This document shows, piece after piece, positions 36,287-57,730 of a DNA stretch of 64,000 bases. The notes under the pieces were generated by a model, which made no database searches, had not been told where the DNA came from, and was given only the letters and a program-made list of their open reading frames with translations. The first letter of the stretch is position 1. Each line of letters opens with the position of its first letter. Origin of the DNA: Beijerinckiaceae bacterium (GTDB lineage Bacteria > Pseudomonadota > Alphaproteobacteria > Rhizobiales > Beijerinckiaceae); contig CANGJJ010000002.1 in assembly GCA_947454485.1 (NCBI GenBank), forward strand, positions 1 through 64,000. Direction: 5' to 3'. The position numbers and the translations under genes were made by a program.

Positions 36287-37459
36287 ATGCAGGCCTGGCA
36301 CTTCACCGAAATGCCCTATCCTCATCTGCCGCCTTTTGACGAGCTCGCGTCCATTCGCGTGACTTTGCCGAGCAAGCATTTCGATCCCAAAATCGGCGCA
36401 GATCTCTACAACCGCTATCTCGACGAATATATGATCGCGGATGATCTTGGCCTCAACATGATGGTCAATGAACATCATCAAACAGCCACCTGTATTGATG
36501 TCGCCGCGCCCTTGTCGCTGGCCATTCTGGCGCGCCAAACCTCCAAGGGCCGCATCTGCATTCTGGGCAATCCGATTGCAAACCGTGGCGATCCGATCCG
36601 CATTGCTGAAGAAATGGCGATGATTGATTGCATTTCGCGCGGGCGCCTGAATGCTGGCTTTGTGCGCGGCGTGCCTTATGAAATTTTCGCGGCCAATACC
36701 AATCCCTCCACAACATTGGCCCGTTTGTGGGAAGGCGTTGATCTATGCATCAAGGCTTGGACCTCCCATGATGAGCCCTTCAATGTTGAGACGCAGTTCA
36801 CCCATCGCCGCGCGGTGAATGTCTGGCCGCGTCCCTATCAAGATCCCCATCCCCCCGTATGGGTGACAGGCTCCAGCGACCGCGAGTCCGTCAAGCGCGC
36901 CGCCTCCAAAGGCTTCGTCTTTGCGACCTTCTTGCAGCCTTGGCCTGTGGTGCGCGATCTCTTCGATGTCTATCGCGCCAACTATCGCGACAATGGACAA
37001 CCGGGCGGCGGCGGCCTTGCCTTCATGCCTATTCTCTATGTCGGCGACACAGAGAGCGAAGCCGAGCGCGGTGCGCGTGAACTGACCTGGTATCTCAAGG
37101 CAAAGGTGGAGCCGCAATTGCGCAATCCGCCGGGCTATTCACCGGTCGCGGCCAATGTCGCGGCGATGCGCGGAGGCGCTGATACACGCTCGCGCACCAA
37201 TGACGGCCTGCGCGCCACCAGCCTTGAAGAGCAGCGCGAACATGGTGTTGTGATTTATGGCACGCCCGATCAGGTCGCCGCGCAGATCCACCGCGAATAT
37301 GAGCGGATCGGTGGCTTTGACCATCTCTTGATGATGATGCAGGCAGGCTTTCTGGATCACAAGAGCACGGTGCGGAACATGACGCTCTTTGCCAAAGAGG
37401 TCTATCCGCAGATCAAGGATTTGCCCGGAACGGTTGAGCTTCTGGCAGCGGCACAATGA
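36287..37459 (+). CDS. LLM class flavin-dependent oxidoreductase (luciferase-like monooxygenase)
   Basis: This is a 390-residue member of the bacterial luciferase superfamily. These proteins use reduced FMN (supplied by a reductase) or F420 to oxygenate or oxidise small molecules. Typical blocks are [16 protein letters not shown] [72 protein letters not shown] and [26 protein letters not shown] lies 7 bases before the ATG. It opens the catabolic region; no flavin reductase is adjacent. The substrate is unknown. Confidence 0.92.
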
Positions 37460-37465
37460 GACCTA

Positions 37466-37486
37466 GCGGGGCCCAAGCGGCCCCGC
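37466..37486. terminator. convergent hairpin between the LLM and SWIB genes
   Basis: The perfect 8-bp stem GCGGGGCC/GGCCCCGC closes a 5-base loop, 6 bases after the LLM stop and 3 bases beyond the SWIB stop. It is symmetrical, so it can serve both strands. There is no T-run on either side. Confidence 0.5.
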
Positions 37487-37489
37487 ATC

Positions 37490-37771
37490 TCACTTGAGAT
37501 GACGCGCGAGATGCTTATTCATCTCGAACATGCTCACCTTGGCTTTATGATCGAACACAGCGCCAAGCTTGTCGTCCGAGATGATCTCGCGCTTGTTCTC
37601 TTCATTCTGCAATTTATGTTTCTTGATATAAGCCCACATTTTACTCACCGCTTCTGAGCGCGGCAAAGGCGCATCACCCACAATCTGCGCAAGTTCTCTG
37701 GAGGGCGTCAGGGGTTTCATAAAACCCGCGCCCGCACCAGACTTGGCCTGTGTGGTTTTTCCAGCAGTCAT
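37490..37771 (-). CDS. SWIB/MDM2 domain-containing protein
   Basis: This is a 93-residue protein consisting of a basic, Thr/Lys/Ala-rich tail (1-17) and one SWIB domain (about 18-93). Signatures are FMKPLTPSRELAQIVGDAPL, RSEAVSKMWAYIKKHKLQ and GAVFDHKAKVSMFEMNKHL. SWIB domains are best known from eukaryotic chromatin remodelers and chlamydiae but occur as stand-alone small proteins in some proteobacteria, where they may bind DNA or topoisomerase. The bacterial role here is unknown. It is an isolated minus-strand gene between catabolic genes. Confidence 0.92.
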   Translation of the reverse strand: MTAGKTTQAKSGAGAGFMKPLTPSRELAQIVGDAPLPRSEAVSKMWAYIKKHKLQNEENKREIISDDKLGAVFDHKAKVSMFEMNKHLARHLK

Positions 37772-37874
37772 CGTGGCGTCCTCCGCGCGCAGTCACAGCG
37801 GAGCAACACAGATCGCCCAAGAATGTTCCATAGATAAGCGAGCGCAGATGGCACATCACCATCTGCGCCACCAT

Positions 37875-55863: not shown

Positions 55864-55896
55864 GCCCAAGAGCGCCATGGCTTGACCTCACATCCT

Positions 55897-55936
55897 GGAG
55901 GTTTATTCCTCCCCCATCACTGATCTGGGAGGAACC
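55897..55936 (+). promoter_or_regulatory. possible RBS-sequestering hairpin with competing stem
   Basis: TTCCTCCC (55906-55913) is a perfect 8-base complement of GGGAGGAA (55927-55934), the ribosome binding site of the next gene. The overlapping CCTCC (55908-55912) can instead pair with GGAGG at 55897-55901. The two structures exclude each other. This is read by eye; stability has not been computed. Confidence 0.4.
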
Positions 55937-56797
55937 ATGAAGATCGTTGCTTTTGACCGTAAGGACGGTCCGGGCCTTGGTGTTGTCGAGGGCGAGAATG
56001 TCATCGACCTGACCGCTGTTGATGCTTTCGCACCGCGCGAACTGGGCGCCGTCTTGCGCGGCCCCGGCCTGAAGGCTCTGGCCACCATCGCCTCGCGCGC
56101 CACAGAGGCCCAGCGCCACAAGCTCTCCTCGCTGAAGCTGCGCATGCCCGTCGAGACCCCCGGCAAGATCATCTGCCTCGGCCTCAATTACATCGAGCAT
56201 GTGAATGAAGGCCCCTATGATCGCCCCGACTATCCCACCTTGTTCATGCGCGGCATGACCTCGCTGGTGGCATCGGGCGAAGCTTTGGTGCGCCCCACCA
56301 CATCCGAGAAATTCGACTATGAGGCCGAGCTCGTCGCCATCATCGGCAAAAGCGCGCGTCATCTGACGGCGGAGAATGCGCTCGACTGCGTGGCCGGCTA
56401 TGCCTGCTTCAACGATGGTTCGCTGCGCGACTTCCAGCGTCACACGACGCAATGGACCATGGGCAAGAATTTCGACAAATCGGGCAGCTTTGGCCCCATC
56501 TTTGTTGGCGCCGATGAGCTGCCTCCCGGCGCCTCTGGCCTCAAGATCGAATGCCGCGTGAATGGTCAGGTCGTGCAGAGCGACAATACCAAAAACATGT
56601 CCTTCAATGTCATCGAGACGCTCGTCTATGTGACCAAGGGCATCACGCTGGAGCCCGGCGATCTGCTCGTCATGGGCACGCCTTCGGGCGTTGGCCATGC
56701 GCGCAAGCCTCCGCTGTGGATGAAGGCTGGCGACACGGTTGAGGTCGAAATCGAAAAGGTCGGCCTGCTGTCAAACCCCATCGTCGACGAAGCCTGA
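55937..56797 (+). CDS. fumarylacetoacetate hydrolase family protein
   Basis: This is a 286-residue single-domain FAH-family enzyme, unlike the two-domain fumarylacetoacetase at 41647. Typical sites are KIICLGLNYIEHVNEG, FDYEAELVAIIGKSARH with the metal-binding E.E, GYACFNDGSLRDFQRHTTQW, GKNFDKSGSFGP and LLVMGTPSGVGHARKPPLWM. Relatives hydrolyse acylpyruvates or decarboxylate/isomerise oxo-dienoates in aromatic meta-cleavage pathways. It follows the Rieske oxygenase and uses the same GGGAGGAACC leader. Confidence 0.93.
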   Translation: MKIVAFDRKDGPGLGVVEGENVIDLTAVDAFAPRELGAVLRGPGLKALATIASRATEAQRHKLSSLKLRMPVETPGKIICLGLNYIEHVNEGPYDRPDYPTLFMRGMTSLVASGEALVRPTTSEKFDYEAELVAIIGKSARHLTAENALDCVAGYACFNDGSLRDFQRHTTQWTMGKNFDKSGSFGPIFVGADELPPGASGLKIECRVNGQVVQSDNTKNMSFNVIETLVYVTKGITLEPGDLLVMGTPSGVGHARKPPLWMKAGDTVEVEIEKVGLLSNPIVDEA

Positions 56798-56842
56798 CGC
56801 TTGTAAACGGGCCGCCAAGGCTTATCTGGGAGGCTTCAGTCC

Positions 56843-57730
56843 ATGAGGCCTCCCATGACCGCCAGCACTGCCAAAACCATCCTTCGCATTCTCGACGCGC
56901 CCCAGCCCCATTGGGTTGGCGATGGCTTTTTGGTTCATCCTCTCTTTGCTGATGCGGCCTTCACGCAAGAGGTCAGCCCCTTTTTGATGTTTGATTATGC
57001 CGCGCCGGTGAAGTTCCCCCCGGCCGACAAGCCGCCCGGTGTTGGGCCTCACCCGCACAAAGGTTTTGAGACCATCACCATCGTCTATGCGGGCGAATTG
57101 GAACATCGCGATTCCGCGGGCCATAGCGGCCAGATTGGCCCCGGTGATGTGCAGTGGATGACCGCTGGCTCTGGCCTGTTGCACGAAGAATTCCATGCGC
57201 GCGAAGCTGCCAAGCGCGGCGGCCTCGTCTCCATGTCGCAGCTCTGGGTCAACTTGCCCAAGCGCGATAAATCCGCCGCACCGCGCTATCAAGATATTCG
57301 CGCCAGCGATATTCCCAACGTTGCCGTGCCCGGCGGCCAAGGCGTCGTGCGCGTGATCGCGGGCAGCTTTCATGGCCACAAAGGCCCCGCCTCCACCTTC
57401 ACCCGCGTTCATGTCTGGGACATGCGCCTCAAAAAGGGCGACCGCTTCACCATCACCCTTGATGCAGGCGATGCGGCTTTGCTGCCTGTTCTGTCAGGCC
57501 GTGTGCACATCAATGGCGAAACAGAAGTCGCCGCCACGCGCTGCATCACCTTCTCGCAAGCGGGCGCAAGCTTCGAGCTTGAGGCGCTGGAGGATGCACT
57601 GCTGCTCTTCTTGGGCGGCGAGCCCATTGATGAGCCCATCGCCGCCTATGGCCCCTTTGTGATGAATACGCAGGACGAGATCCGCGACGCCATCATGGAG
57701 TTTCGCGCGGGCAAGATGGGTACTCTTTAG
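56843..57730 (+). CDS. pirin family protein
   Basis: This is a 295-residue bicupin of the pirin family. The N-terminal cupin has the metal site in GVGPHPHKGFETITIVYAGE, LEHRDSAG and GDVQWMTAGSGLLHEEF. The C-terminal cupin covers about 170-270 (VWDMRLKKGDRFTITLDAGD, LFLGGEPIDEPIAAYGPFVM). Bacterial pirins are iron proteins, some with quercetinase activity, others modulating enzymes. GGGAGG lies 9 bases before the first ATG; 56855 is an alternative. It is the last gene of the catabolic region. Confidence 0.94.
   Translation: MRPPMTASTAKTILRILDAPQPHWVGDGFLVHPLFADAAFTQEVSPFLMFDYAAPVKFPPADKPPGVGPHPHKGFETITIVYAGELEHRDSAGHSGQIGPGDVQWMTAGSGLLHEEFHAREAAKRGGLVSMSQLWVNLPKRDKSAAPRYQDIRASDIPNVAVPGGQGVVRVIAGSFHGHKGPASTFTRVHVWDMRLKKGDRFTITLDAGDAALLPVLSGRVHINGETEVAATRCITFSQAGASFELEALEDALLLFLGGEPIDEPIAAYGPFVMNTQDEIRDAIMEFRAGKMGTL

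What the first reader, a model, noticed from the sequence alone, without database searches (positions are those of the whole stretch)
36287..57730. A 21-kb catabolic region built from single, partner-less components
Sequence shows a luciferase-like monooxygenase, two UbiD decarboxylases, two MetE-core proteins, an extradiol dioxygenase, hmgA-fahA, LigJ-like hydratase, HpaI aldolase, dihydroxyphthalate-decarboxylase-like protein, cupin, molybdenum hydroxylase, binding protein, Rieske oxygenase, FAH-family hydrolase and pirin. Family knowledge says most of these act with partners that are absent. Inference: an undescribed route for a carboxylated (perhaps methoxylated) aromatic or heterocycle that recruits general redox partners from elsewhere.
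Basis: partly seen in the sequence, partly recalled or inferred. Interest (0 to 1): 0.75.

Follow-up and report, generated by a model that had tools for sequence, protein, structure and literature searches.

The report
Second phthalate-type aromatic breakdown gene block
A block of 17 genes in a little-known bacterium joins gene groups that recur in its relatives and looks like a second pathway for breaking down phthalate-like aromatic acids, with candidate helper proteins elsewhere in the genome and unexplained methyl-transfer enzymes inside it.

Summary
The 17 genes are present as stated, and the block is not a chance collection. Gene order from fahA-hmgA to pirin recurs in related genomes (G032, G033, G005; cut copies in G028, G036), and the LigJ-HpaI-Pht5-like trio also occurs on Burkholderiales and Paracoccus plasmids. 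But the block is composite: module A (LigJ, HpaI aldolase, Pht5-like, cupin, core-MetE proteins) and the Rieske group lie on different contigs in at least four other genomes, and half of the genomes with MetE2 lack a close copy of this Rieske gene. hmgA-fahA is the ordinary homogentisate pair. The Rieske protein is 61% identical to phthalate dioxygenase PDO_KF1 and keeps four published pocket residues; three other Rieske paralogues of the genome keep one. The genome also has what looks like a textbook phthalate operon on another contig, with reductase and dehydrogenase. 'Partner-less' is true locally, but candidate partners exist elsewhere. Both MetE-core proteins keep zinc and homocysteine-binding residues although MetH is present. 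Best reading: a second, divergent route for an ortho-dicarboxylated aromatic, with a LigJ-HpaI end. Substrate, unity of the pathway and MetE role are open. New variant of a known kind.

The parts
36287..37459 (+). luciferase-like monooxygenase (edge; membership in the block not supported)
   Evidence: PF00296 1.7e-34; a 73% paralogue lies on C1; no match in the blocks of relatives
37875..39401 (-). UbiD1 decarboxylase
   Evidence: PF01977 5.6e-58; 71% identical to UbiD2
39386..40537 (-). core MetE-like protein 1 (MetE1)
   Evidence: NF005085 432 bits over cut-off 313; zinc and homocysteine residues kept
40549..41646 (+). type I extradiol dioxygenase
   Evidence: PF00903, BphC_D1; NCBIfam 23dbph12diox 242 bits, below its cut-off of 366
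41647..42975 (-). fahA, fumarylacetoacetase
   Evidence: TIGR01266 566 bits over cut-off 375
42930..44360 (-). hmgA, homogentisate 1,2-dioxygenase (start probably further in)
   Evidence: TIGR01015 666 bits over cut-off 511, from residue 47
44554..45591 (+). LigJ-type 4-oxalomesaconate hydratase
   Evidence: 2gwg 1.3e-153 and 6dxq 1.8e-132, both named 4-oxalomesaconate hydratase, end to end
45650..46507 (+). HpaI-type class II aldolase, proposed stand-in for the LigK/RraA aldolase
   Evidence: PF03328 5.6e-22; PDB alignment 4mf4 1.4e-18
46592..47500 (+). Pht5-like protein (4,5-dihydroxyphthalate decarboxylase family), frame opens at 46541
   Evidence: 9jp7 4.1e-14; alignment A2
47510..48070 (+). 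cupin
   Evidence: PF07883 3e-9; 87-92% in close relatives, 57-73% in deeper ones
48116..49279 (-). core MetE-like protein 2 (MetE2)
   Evidence: PF01717 8.9e-13; zinc and homocysteine residues kept
49341..51716 (-). molybdenum hydroxylase large subunit without small/FAD subunits nearby
   Evidence: MoCoBD_1/2; no Fer2_2 within the window
51733..53355 (+). UbiD2 decarboxylase (start probably further in)
   Evidence: PF01977 4.8e-58; best PDB match 6h6v 6e-60
53433..54473 (+). substrate-binding protein with signal-like start
   Evidence: NMT1 7.5e-20; N-terminus
54598..55863 (+). Rieske oxygenase of phthalate-dioxygenase type (PDO-2)
   Evidence: 7fjl 2e-179; S182, R207, R244, I256 kept
55937..56797 (+). 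FAH-family hydrolase/decarboxylase
   Evidence: PF01557 1.5e-64
56843..57730 (+). pirin
   Evidence: PF02678, PF05726

Best explanation
The block is conserved catabolic modules plus the pair hmgA-fahA, joined in one clade. Together they form a second, divergent pathway for an ortho-dicarboxylated (phthalate-like) aromatic. Proposed order: the binding protein takes up the acid. PDO-2 (54598) dihydroxylates the ring with electrons from the PDR-like reductase on contig C4. A dehydrogenase from elsewhere re-aromatises it; an SDR sits just before LigJ in most relatives looked at but not here. The Pht5-like protein and/or a UbiD removes a carboxylate. The ring is opened by the extradiol enzyme at 40549 or by a LigB enzyme elsewhere. 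The product reaches 4-oxalomesaconate, LigJ hydrates it, and the HpaI-type aldolase, in place of LigK, splits it into pyruvate and oxaloacetate. The lone molybdenum large subunit takes its small and FAD subunits in trans. Shown by sequence: the families, the phthalate pocket, LigJ, conservation of the groups, and the existence of candidate partners elsewhere. Inferred: that the groups form one pathway, the order of steps, the substrate, supply in trans, the aldolase substrate, and any role of the two MetE-core proteins.
For: Rieske: 61% identity to PDO_KF1 over 419 residues. S182, R207, R244 and I256, named in PMC12445078 (passages), are kept in 8 of 8 window-type proteins aligned (the window's included) and in the C4 paralogue, while the 3 other LigXa-type paralogues keep only R244. 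LigJ aligns end to end with 2gwg and 6dxq. Synteny: G032 has 13 genes from fahA to pirin in order; G033 has the same 13 over two stretches; G005 all but the binding protein; G028 and G036 contig-cut versions, with a few extra genes in places. LigJ and a Pht5-like gene lie on one contig in at least 22 of 31 genomes with a full-length LigJ of 60% or more (the list was cut). LigJ and MetE2 (66% or more) share a contig in 16 of 20 genomes with both. LigJ, HpaI and Pht5 also occur together in plasmid stretches of Acidovorax, Diaphorobacter, Paraburkholderia and Paracoccus at 60-64, 52-57 and 45-47%. G059, another family, has LigJ (56%, one stop reported in the match) near an RraA-type aldolase. PDO-2 lies with a UbiD and a Mo large subunit in two non-orthologous settings. 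Candidate partners: C4 reductase, C3 set.
Against: In G031, G026, G027 and G019 PDO-2 lies on a different contig from LigJ. Only 11 of 22 genomes with MetE2 of 66% or more also have a PDO-2 of 66% or more; G022, G024 and G030, each 99% complete, have module A without it. Of 10 PDO-2 stretches fetched, 4 show UbiD and Mo subunit, 1 a cut Mo subunit, 5 neither (three of these are contigs under 12 kb). G009 keeps LigJ-HpaI-Pht5-hmgA but no cupin nearby, and MetE2 lies 14 kb off. The plasmid stretches have no MetE match. No 4,5-cleavage enzyme is in the window. The Pht5-like protein is only distantly related to a proven decarboxylase. The HpaI protein is far below the HpaI equivalog cut-off (85 against 369 bits). 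The genome already has a phthalate-type operon on C4. Use of partners in trans is not shown. UbiX was not searched.
Confidence: 0.4

Rival explanations
1. Side-by-side modules without a common pathway: LigJ-HpaI-Pht5-like-cupin-MetE, the Rieske group (UbiD2, Mo subunit, binding protein, Rieske, FAH, pirin), UbiD1-MetE1 and hmgA-fahA serve different substrates and were brought together because catabolic genes cluster.
For: The LigJ and Rieske groups are on different contigs in G031, G026, G027 and G019, and 11 of 22 genomes with MetE2 lack a close PDO-2. Gene direction changes 6 times within the block. hmgA-fahA is a complete pair. The genome is rich in paralogues of these families: 12 UbiD, 11 Pht5-like, 5 LigXa-type Rieske.
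Against: Joint order and orientation are kept in G032, G033 and G005 at 70-91% protein identity. UbiD1 and UbiD2, 71% identical, lie in both halves of the block.
Confidence: 0.38
2. A spare copy of the phthalate pathway: PDO-2 does the same job as the C4 operon and the rest is unrelated.
For: The same pocket residues and similar identity to PDO_KF1 (61 and 62%) in both paralogues.
Against: PDO-2 and the C4 paralogue are 59% identical. 25 of 37 genomes of the genus have two or more matches at 1e-100, so more than one such gene is usually kept. The C4-type gene lies with reductase, dehydrogenase and QPRTase, PDO-2 does not.
Confidence: 0.14

Closest known systems
Phthalate 4,5-dioxygenase pathway (pht/oph operons; PDO_KF1 of Comamonas testosteroni)
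   Same: PDO-type Rieske oxygenase with the phthalate pocket; a distant member of the dihydroxyphthalate decarboxylase family
   Different: No reductase or cis-dihydrodiol dehydrogenase beside it; two UbiDs, a lone Mo large subunit and core MetEs instead. A phthalate-type operon is elsewhere in the genome (C4).
Protocatechuate/gallate 4,5-cleavage lower pathway (ligJ/ligK; pmd, gal)
   Same: Close LigJ hydratase followed by a class II pyruvate aldolase
   Different: Aldolase is of HpaI type, not RraA/LigK; no LigB in the window; LigC and LigI were not searched as such, none was seen among the block's genes
Core methionine synthases MesA-MesD (PMC7857596, passages)
   Same: Folate domain missing; zinc ligands HCEC and homocysteine residues S, E, D kept
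   Different: No DUF1852 partner among the block's genes; beside catabolic genes; MetH present in the genome
UbiD decarboxylases; best solved match 6h6v (recalled to be the 2,5-furandicarboxylate decarboxylase HmfF)
   Same: UbiD, UbiD_N and UbiD_C domains
   Different: No UbiX among the block's genes; the substrate cannot be inferred

Membership tests
Phthalate dioxygenase (oxygenase component) | Rieske motif CxH-CxxH and iron ligands H181, H186, D343 | tested here: met
   Aligned residues kept; the numbers are mine, inferred from H177, H182, D337 of IPDO and from invariance
Phthalate dioxygenase (oxygenase component) | Residues S182, R207, R244, I256 of PDO_KF1 | tested here: met
   All four kept; 3 other paralogues of the genome keep only R244
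Phthalate dioxygenase (oxygenase component) | Cognate reductase encoded nearby | tested here: not met
   No NAD_binding_1 protein in the window; PDR-like reductase at C4:189203-190183 beside the paralogue
Phthalate dioxygenase (oxygenase component) | Turnover of phthalate | not testable with these tools
   needs enzyme assay
Protocatechuate 4,5-cleavage lower pathway | 4-oxalomesaconate hydratase LigJ | tested here: met
   End-to-end alignment with 2gwg and 6dxq
Protocatechuate 4,5-cleavage lower pathway | LigK/RraA-type CHA aldolase next to LigJ | tested here: not met
   HpaI-type here; RraA-type two genes from LigJ in G059
Protocatechuate 4,5-cleavage lower pathway | LigB-type ring-opening dioxygenase in the cluster | tested here: not met
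   None in the window, 5 elsewhere in the genome; beside LigJ in G024 by Pfam and in G022, G030 by similarity
4,5-dihydroxyphthalate decarboxylase | Homology to a solved member and shared invariant residues | tested here: inconclusive
   E 4e-14 to 9jp7; R55, F59, E63, H92, W126, R128, W144 are invariant in the 14 sequences of A2 and meet the same letters in 9jp7; their roles are unknown to me
Core methionine synthase (Mes) | Zinc ligands H, C, E, C and homocysteine-binding S, E, D | tested here: met
   Invariant in 13 of 13 sequences of A1; criteria from PMC7857596, mapped by me through
Core methionine synthase MesD | MesX (DUF1852) partner | tested here: not met
   No DUF1852 among the Pfam-scanned genes of the block; the rest of the genome not searched
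UbiD decarboxylase | UbiD domains over the curated cut-off | tested here: met
   UbiD and UbiD_C over cut-off in both; UbiD_N of UbiD2 just below (24.1 against 24.3)
UbiD decarboxylase | UbiX prenyltransferase in the genome | not tested
   no search left
Molybdenum hydroxylase (CoxSML type) | Small and FAD subunits beside the large subunit | tested here: not met
   No Fer2_2 in the window, no FAD_binding_5 among the block's genes; a C3 set without large subunit exists

The most novel reading that the evidence does not exclude
The two core-MetE proteins are demethylases of the pathway. A zinc-activated homocysteine thiolate takes the methyl group directly from a methoxylated aromatic acid (in this clade for example a dimethoxyphthalate set free from lignin or humic matter), giving methionine plus a dihydroxy acid, which the Pht5-like enzyme decarboxylates and the LigJ-HpaI branch degrades. 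That would be an aryl-O-demethylation free of cobalamin, folate and oxygen and coupled to methionine synthesis.
Probability: 0.1. Interest if true: 0.85.

Novelty: new variant of a known kind. Interest (0 to 1): 0.48.

Why it matters
A genus with many genomes on record carries phthalate-type dioxygenases in different gene settings, and a LigJ-HpaI-Pht5-like module, also found on Burkholderiales and Paracoccus plasmids, whose substrate is unknown. The frequent link of core MetE proteins with this module in the genus asks what else the homocysteine-activating MetE site does besides make methionine.

Tried and rejected
Genomic island at the tRNA-Arg: no composition step and no repeat of the tRNA 3' end in the window. 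MetE proteins as the cell's only methionine synthase: unlikely, because MetH is present as a 1249-aa frame; the genome has 6 core-MetE genes (7 rows, two of them one gene). Against a purely catabolic MetE2: its best plasmid homologue, 45% in Rhodococcus sp. PD04, lies directly behind a full-length metE, with no LigJ-type neighbour annotated; other plasmid homologues were not looked at. Lone Mo large subunits as one clade: not supported; the window protein is as close to a C5 large subunit that has a small subunit nearby (46%) as to the lone C12 one (45%). AlphaFold of the Pht5-like protein and MetE2 with shallow alignments gave mean pLDDT 43.4 and 43.9; no fold search was made with them. The one related-loci scan of genomes gave 3 loci. 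Literature: the listings (empty) showed no paper that I recognised as describing this gene set; no paper was read whole. PMC12445078, PMC13040137, PMC7857596, PMC12366255, PMC10865409 and PMC5065237 were seen as passages; the JBC paper on PDO_KF1 is not held, so that 7fjl is PDO_KF1 rests on residue numbers in PMC12445078 falling on the right letters.
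Full report
What is there. The window is the start of contig C2 of a 3.29-Mb, 20-contig genome. Two relatives can be named by equal contig length: G032 (80,815 bases, CANGFT010000012.1, Beijerinckiaceae MAG Jr-28aug17-115) and G009 (18,760 bases, JANYFM010000363.1, Hyphomicrobiales MAG).

Conservation. Window proteins were searched against 23 loci, 21 distinct ones, since L019/L025 and L020/L028 cover the same contigs. 14 of 21 hold LigJ, HpaI and Pht5-like side by side (one with LigJ cut), two hold HpaI-Pht5 at a contig end, and five, fetched for their Pht5-like paralogue, hold no LigJ next to it. 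G032 keeps 13 genes from fahA to pirin in the window's order and orientation; G033 the same 13 over two stretches; G005 all but the binding protein; G028 and G036 what their contigs hold, with UbiD1-MetE1-extradiol (G028) or the extradiol gene (G036) on the fahA side. Identities are 70-92%. Extra genes occur in places (a TauE-type gene, an SDR). G009 keeps hmgA, LigJ, HpaI and Pht5 but no cupin in the stretch, and MetE2 lies 14 kb away. In deeper members (G034, G004, G035, G024, G022, G030) LigJ-HpaI-Pht5-like remains with MetE1 and/or MetE2 at 48-81%. In G024 the order is FAD monooxygenase, MetE1, LigB-type dioxygenase, SDR, LigJ, HpaI, Pht5-like; G022 and G030 have the same by similarity. 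The SDR upstream of LigJ was found in 9 of the 10 genus loci with LigJ searched (not in G005); in the window only 193 bases separate hmgA and LigJ.

Counts. Of 61 genomes (own included), 33 have a LigJ match at 1e-60; 31 of them are full length at 60% or more, leaving out G016 (partial) and G059 (56%). In at least 22 of these 31 a Pht5-like gene lies on the same contig (E 1e-10, list cut). 22 genomes have MetE2 at 66% or more, one of them partial; 20 of these have LigJ, on the same contig in 16 (within 16 kb in 15, 26 kb in G003); the other four assemblies have 80 to 580 contigs. 11 of 31 LigJ genomes have no such MetE2. 22 of 37 genus genomes have a Rieske match of 66% or more, a partial one in G012 not counted; only 11 genomes have both this and MetE2. 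So MetE2 and PDO-2 are not tied to each other across the genus.

Plasmids. LigJ-HpaI-Pht5 also occur together in stretches of Acidovorax sp. DW039, Diaphorobacter sp. HDW4B, Paraburkholderia largidicola and Paracoccus denitrificans. A second Pht5-like gene and a further amidohydrolase accompany them in all four, a LigB-type dioxygenase in the first two. None of the four stretches matched the MetE queries.

The block is composite. Of 10 window-type Rieske stretches fetched, four (G031, G026, G027, G019) hold a UbiD, a Mo large subunit, an SDR and an FAD monooxygenase, on contigs other than LigJ's; one (G025) holds a cut Mo subunit, SDR and FAD monooxygenase; five show neither UbiD nor Mo subunit: G003 and G013 have luciferase-like genes nearby, and G029, G002 and G020 are contigs under 12 kb. 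The UbiD and Mo proteins of G031 and G019 are orthologues of the window genome's C12 locus (68-71%), not of the window's UbiD2 and Mo subunit (30-31% and 47%). So a PDO-2, a UbiD and a Mo large subunit meet in two non-orthologous settings; small subunits were not searched in those genomes.

The Rieske protein. It is 61% identical to 7fjl. PMC12445078 (passages) names S182, R207, R244 and I256 of PDO_KF1; these numbers fall on the same letters of 7fjl. All four are kept in the 8 window-type proteins aligned and in the C4 paralogue; the C12 and two C1 paralogues keep only R244. On C4 stand a PDR-like reductase, a GFO/MocA dehydrogenase, a PDO paralogue 62-63% identical to PDO_KF1, a QPRTase, a 351-aa Pht5-like protein, a cupin and an EutA-like gene; that dehydrogenases of this family and QPRTases belong to phthalate operons is recalled. 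G004 and G035 have the same genes except the Pht5-like one, which gave no match in those stretches; G034 has three of them on a short contig. 25 of 37 genus genomes have two or more Rieske matches at 1e-100. A phthalate-type substrate for the window Rieske is well supported; which one is open.

Lower pathway. The amidohydrolase aligns end to end with 4-oxalomesaconate hydratases 2gwg and 6dxq. In G059 its 56% homologue lies in a row with a P450, a binding protein, an RraA-type aldolase and a cupin. PMC5065237 (passages) sets RraA-type and HpaI-type class II pyruvate aldolases apart in structure and cites them as convergent, so an HpaI-type stand-in for LigK is reasonable but unproved.

Partners. 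The genome has 17 Mo large subunits (18 rows) and 13 small ones. Four large subunits have no small subunit within 5 kb: the window's, C12:22433, C10:44113 and C1:375242. Conversely C3:8115-10030 has CoxG, FAD and 2Fe-2S subunits and no large subunit. PF00175 finds 3 reductases in the genome, one beside the C4 PDO. Sharing in trans is possible and untested.

MetE-core proteins. Alignment A1 (13 sequences of both types, with one from Rhodococcus sp. PD04) keeps H253, C255, E287, C351 and S15, E67, D207 without exception. I map these through to the zinc and homocysteine residues given in PMC7857596 (passages). MetH is present. The proteins therefore probably activate homocysteine or a like thiol, with a donor other than methyl-folate; an aromatic ether as donor is speculation, and the Rhodococcus homologue beside metE and the MetE-free plasmid clusters speak against a fixed link.

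Verdict. Observation confirmed; interpretation partly supported. A second, divergent phthalate-type route (0.40) and neighbouring modules without one pathway (0.38) are nearly equal; the evidence does not separate them, and I commit to the route because it makes the sharper predictions. New variant of a known kind, interest 0.48. The boldest reading not excluded is methyl transfer from a methoxylated aromatic acid to homocysteine by the core MetE pair.

Noticed in passing
G000 C1, C2, C3, C5, C6, C12: 12 UbiD-family genes in a 3.29-Mb genome and 11 Pht5-like genes; the 36 other genus genomes searched have 2 to 15 Pht5-like genes each.
   Followed up: partly
L121:8115-10030 (G000:C3): CoxG, FAD subunit and 2Fe-2S subunit of a molybdenum hydroxylase with no large subunit nearby, while four large subunits of the genome have no small subunit within 5 kb.
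   Followed up: partly
L091 (G000:C4:182001-202000): Phthalate-type operon with QPRTase, a 371-aa cupin and an EutA-like gene; same genes without the Pht5-like one in G004 and G035.
   Followed up: partly
L069 (G000:C12), L101, L106: Repeated unit of UbiD, Mo large subunit and an NMT1-like protein without a signal-like start.
   Followed up: partly
L055, L056, L057, L060: LigJ-HpaI-Pht5-like module on plasmids of Acidovorax, Diaphorobacter, Paraburkholderia and Paracoccus, near DUF1302/DUF1329/YCF48 genes in the first two.
   Followed up: partly
L058:7328-8852: Roseomonas mucosa plasmid gene annotated as CHA aldolase directly followed by a Pht5-like gene (34%).
   Followed up: no
window 57797-60309: iPGM and a 2-hydroxyacid dehydrogenase flank the block on the right in G032, G005 and G033 too, with an extra gene of 366-367 aa (DAO-type oxidoreductase, Pfam-tested in G033 only) between pirin and iPGM.
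   Followed up: partly
window 62155-63893: Carbonic anhydrase next to a CitE-like lyase, divergent.
   Followed up: no
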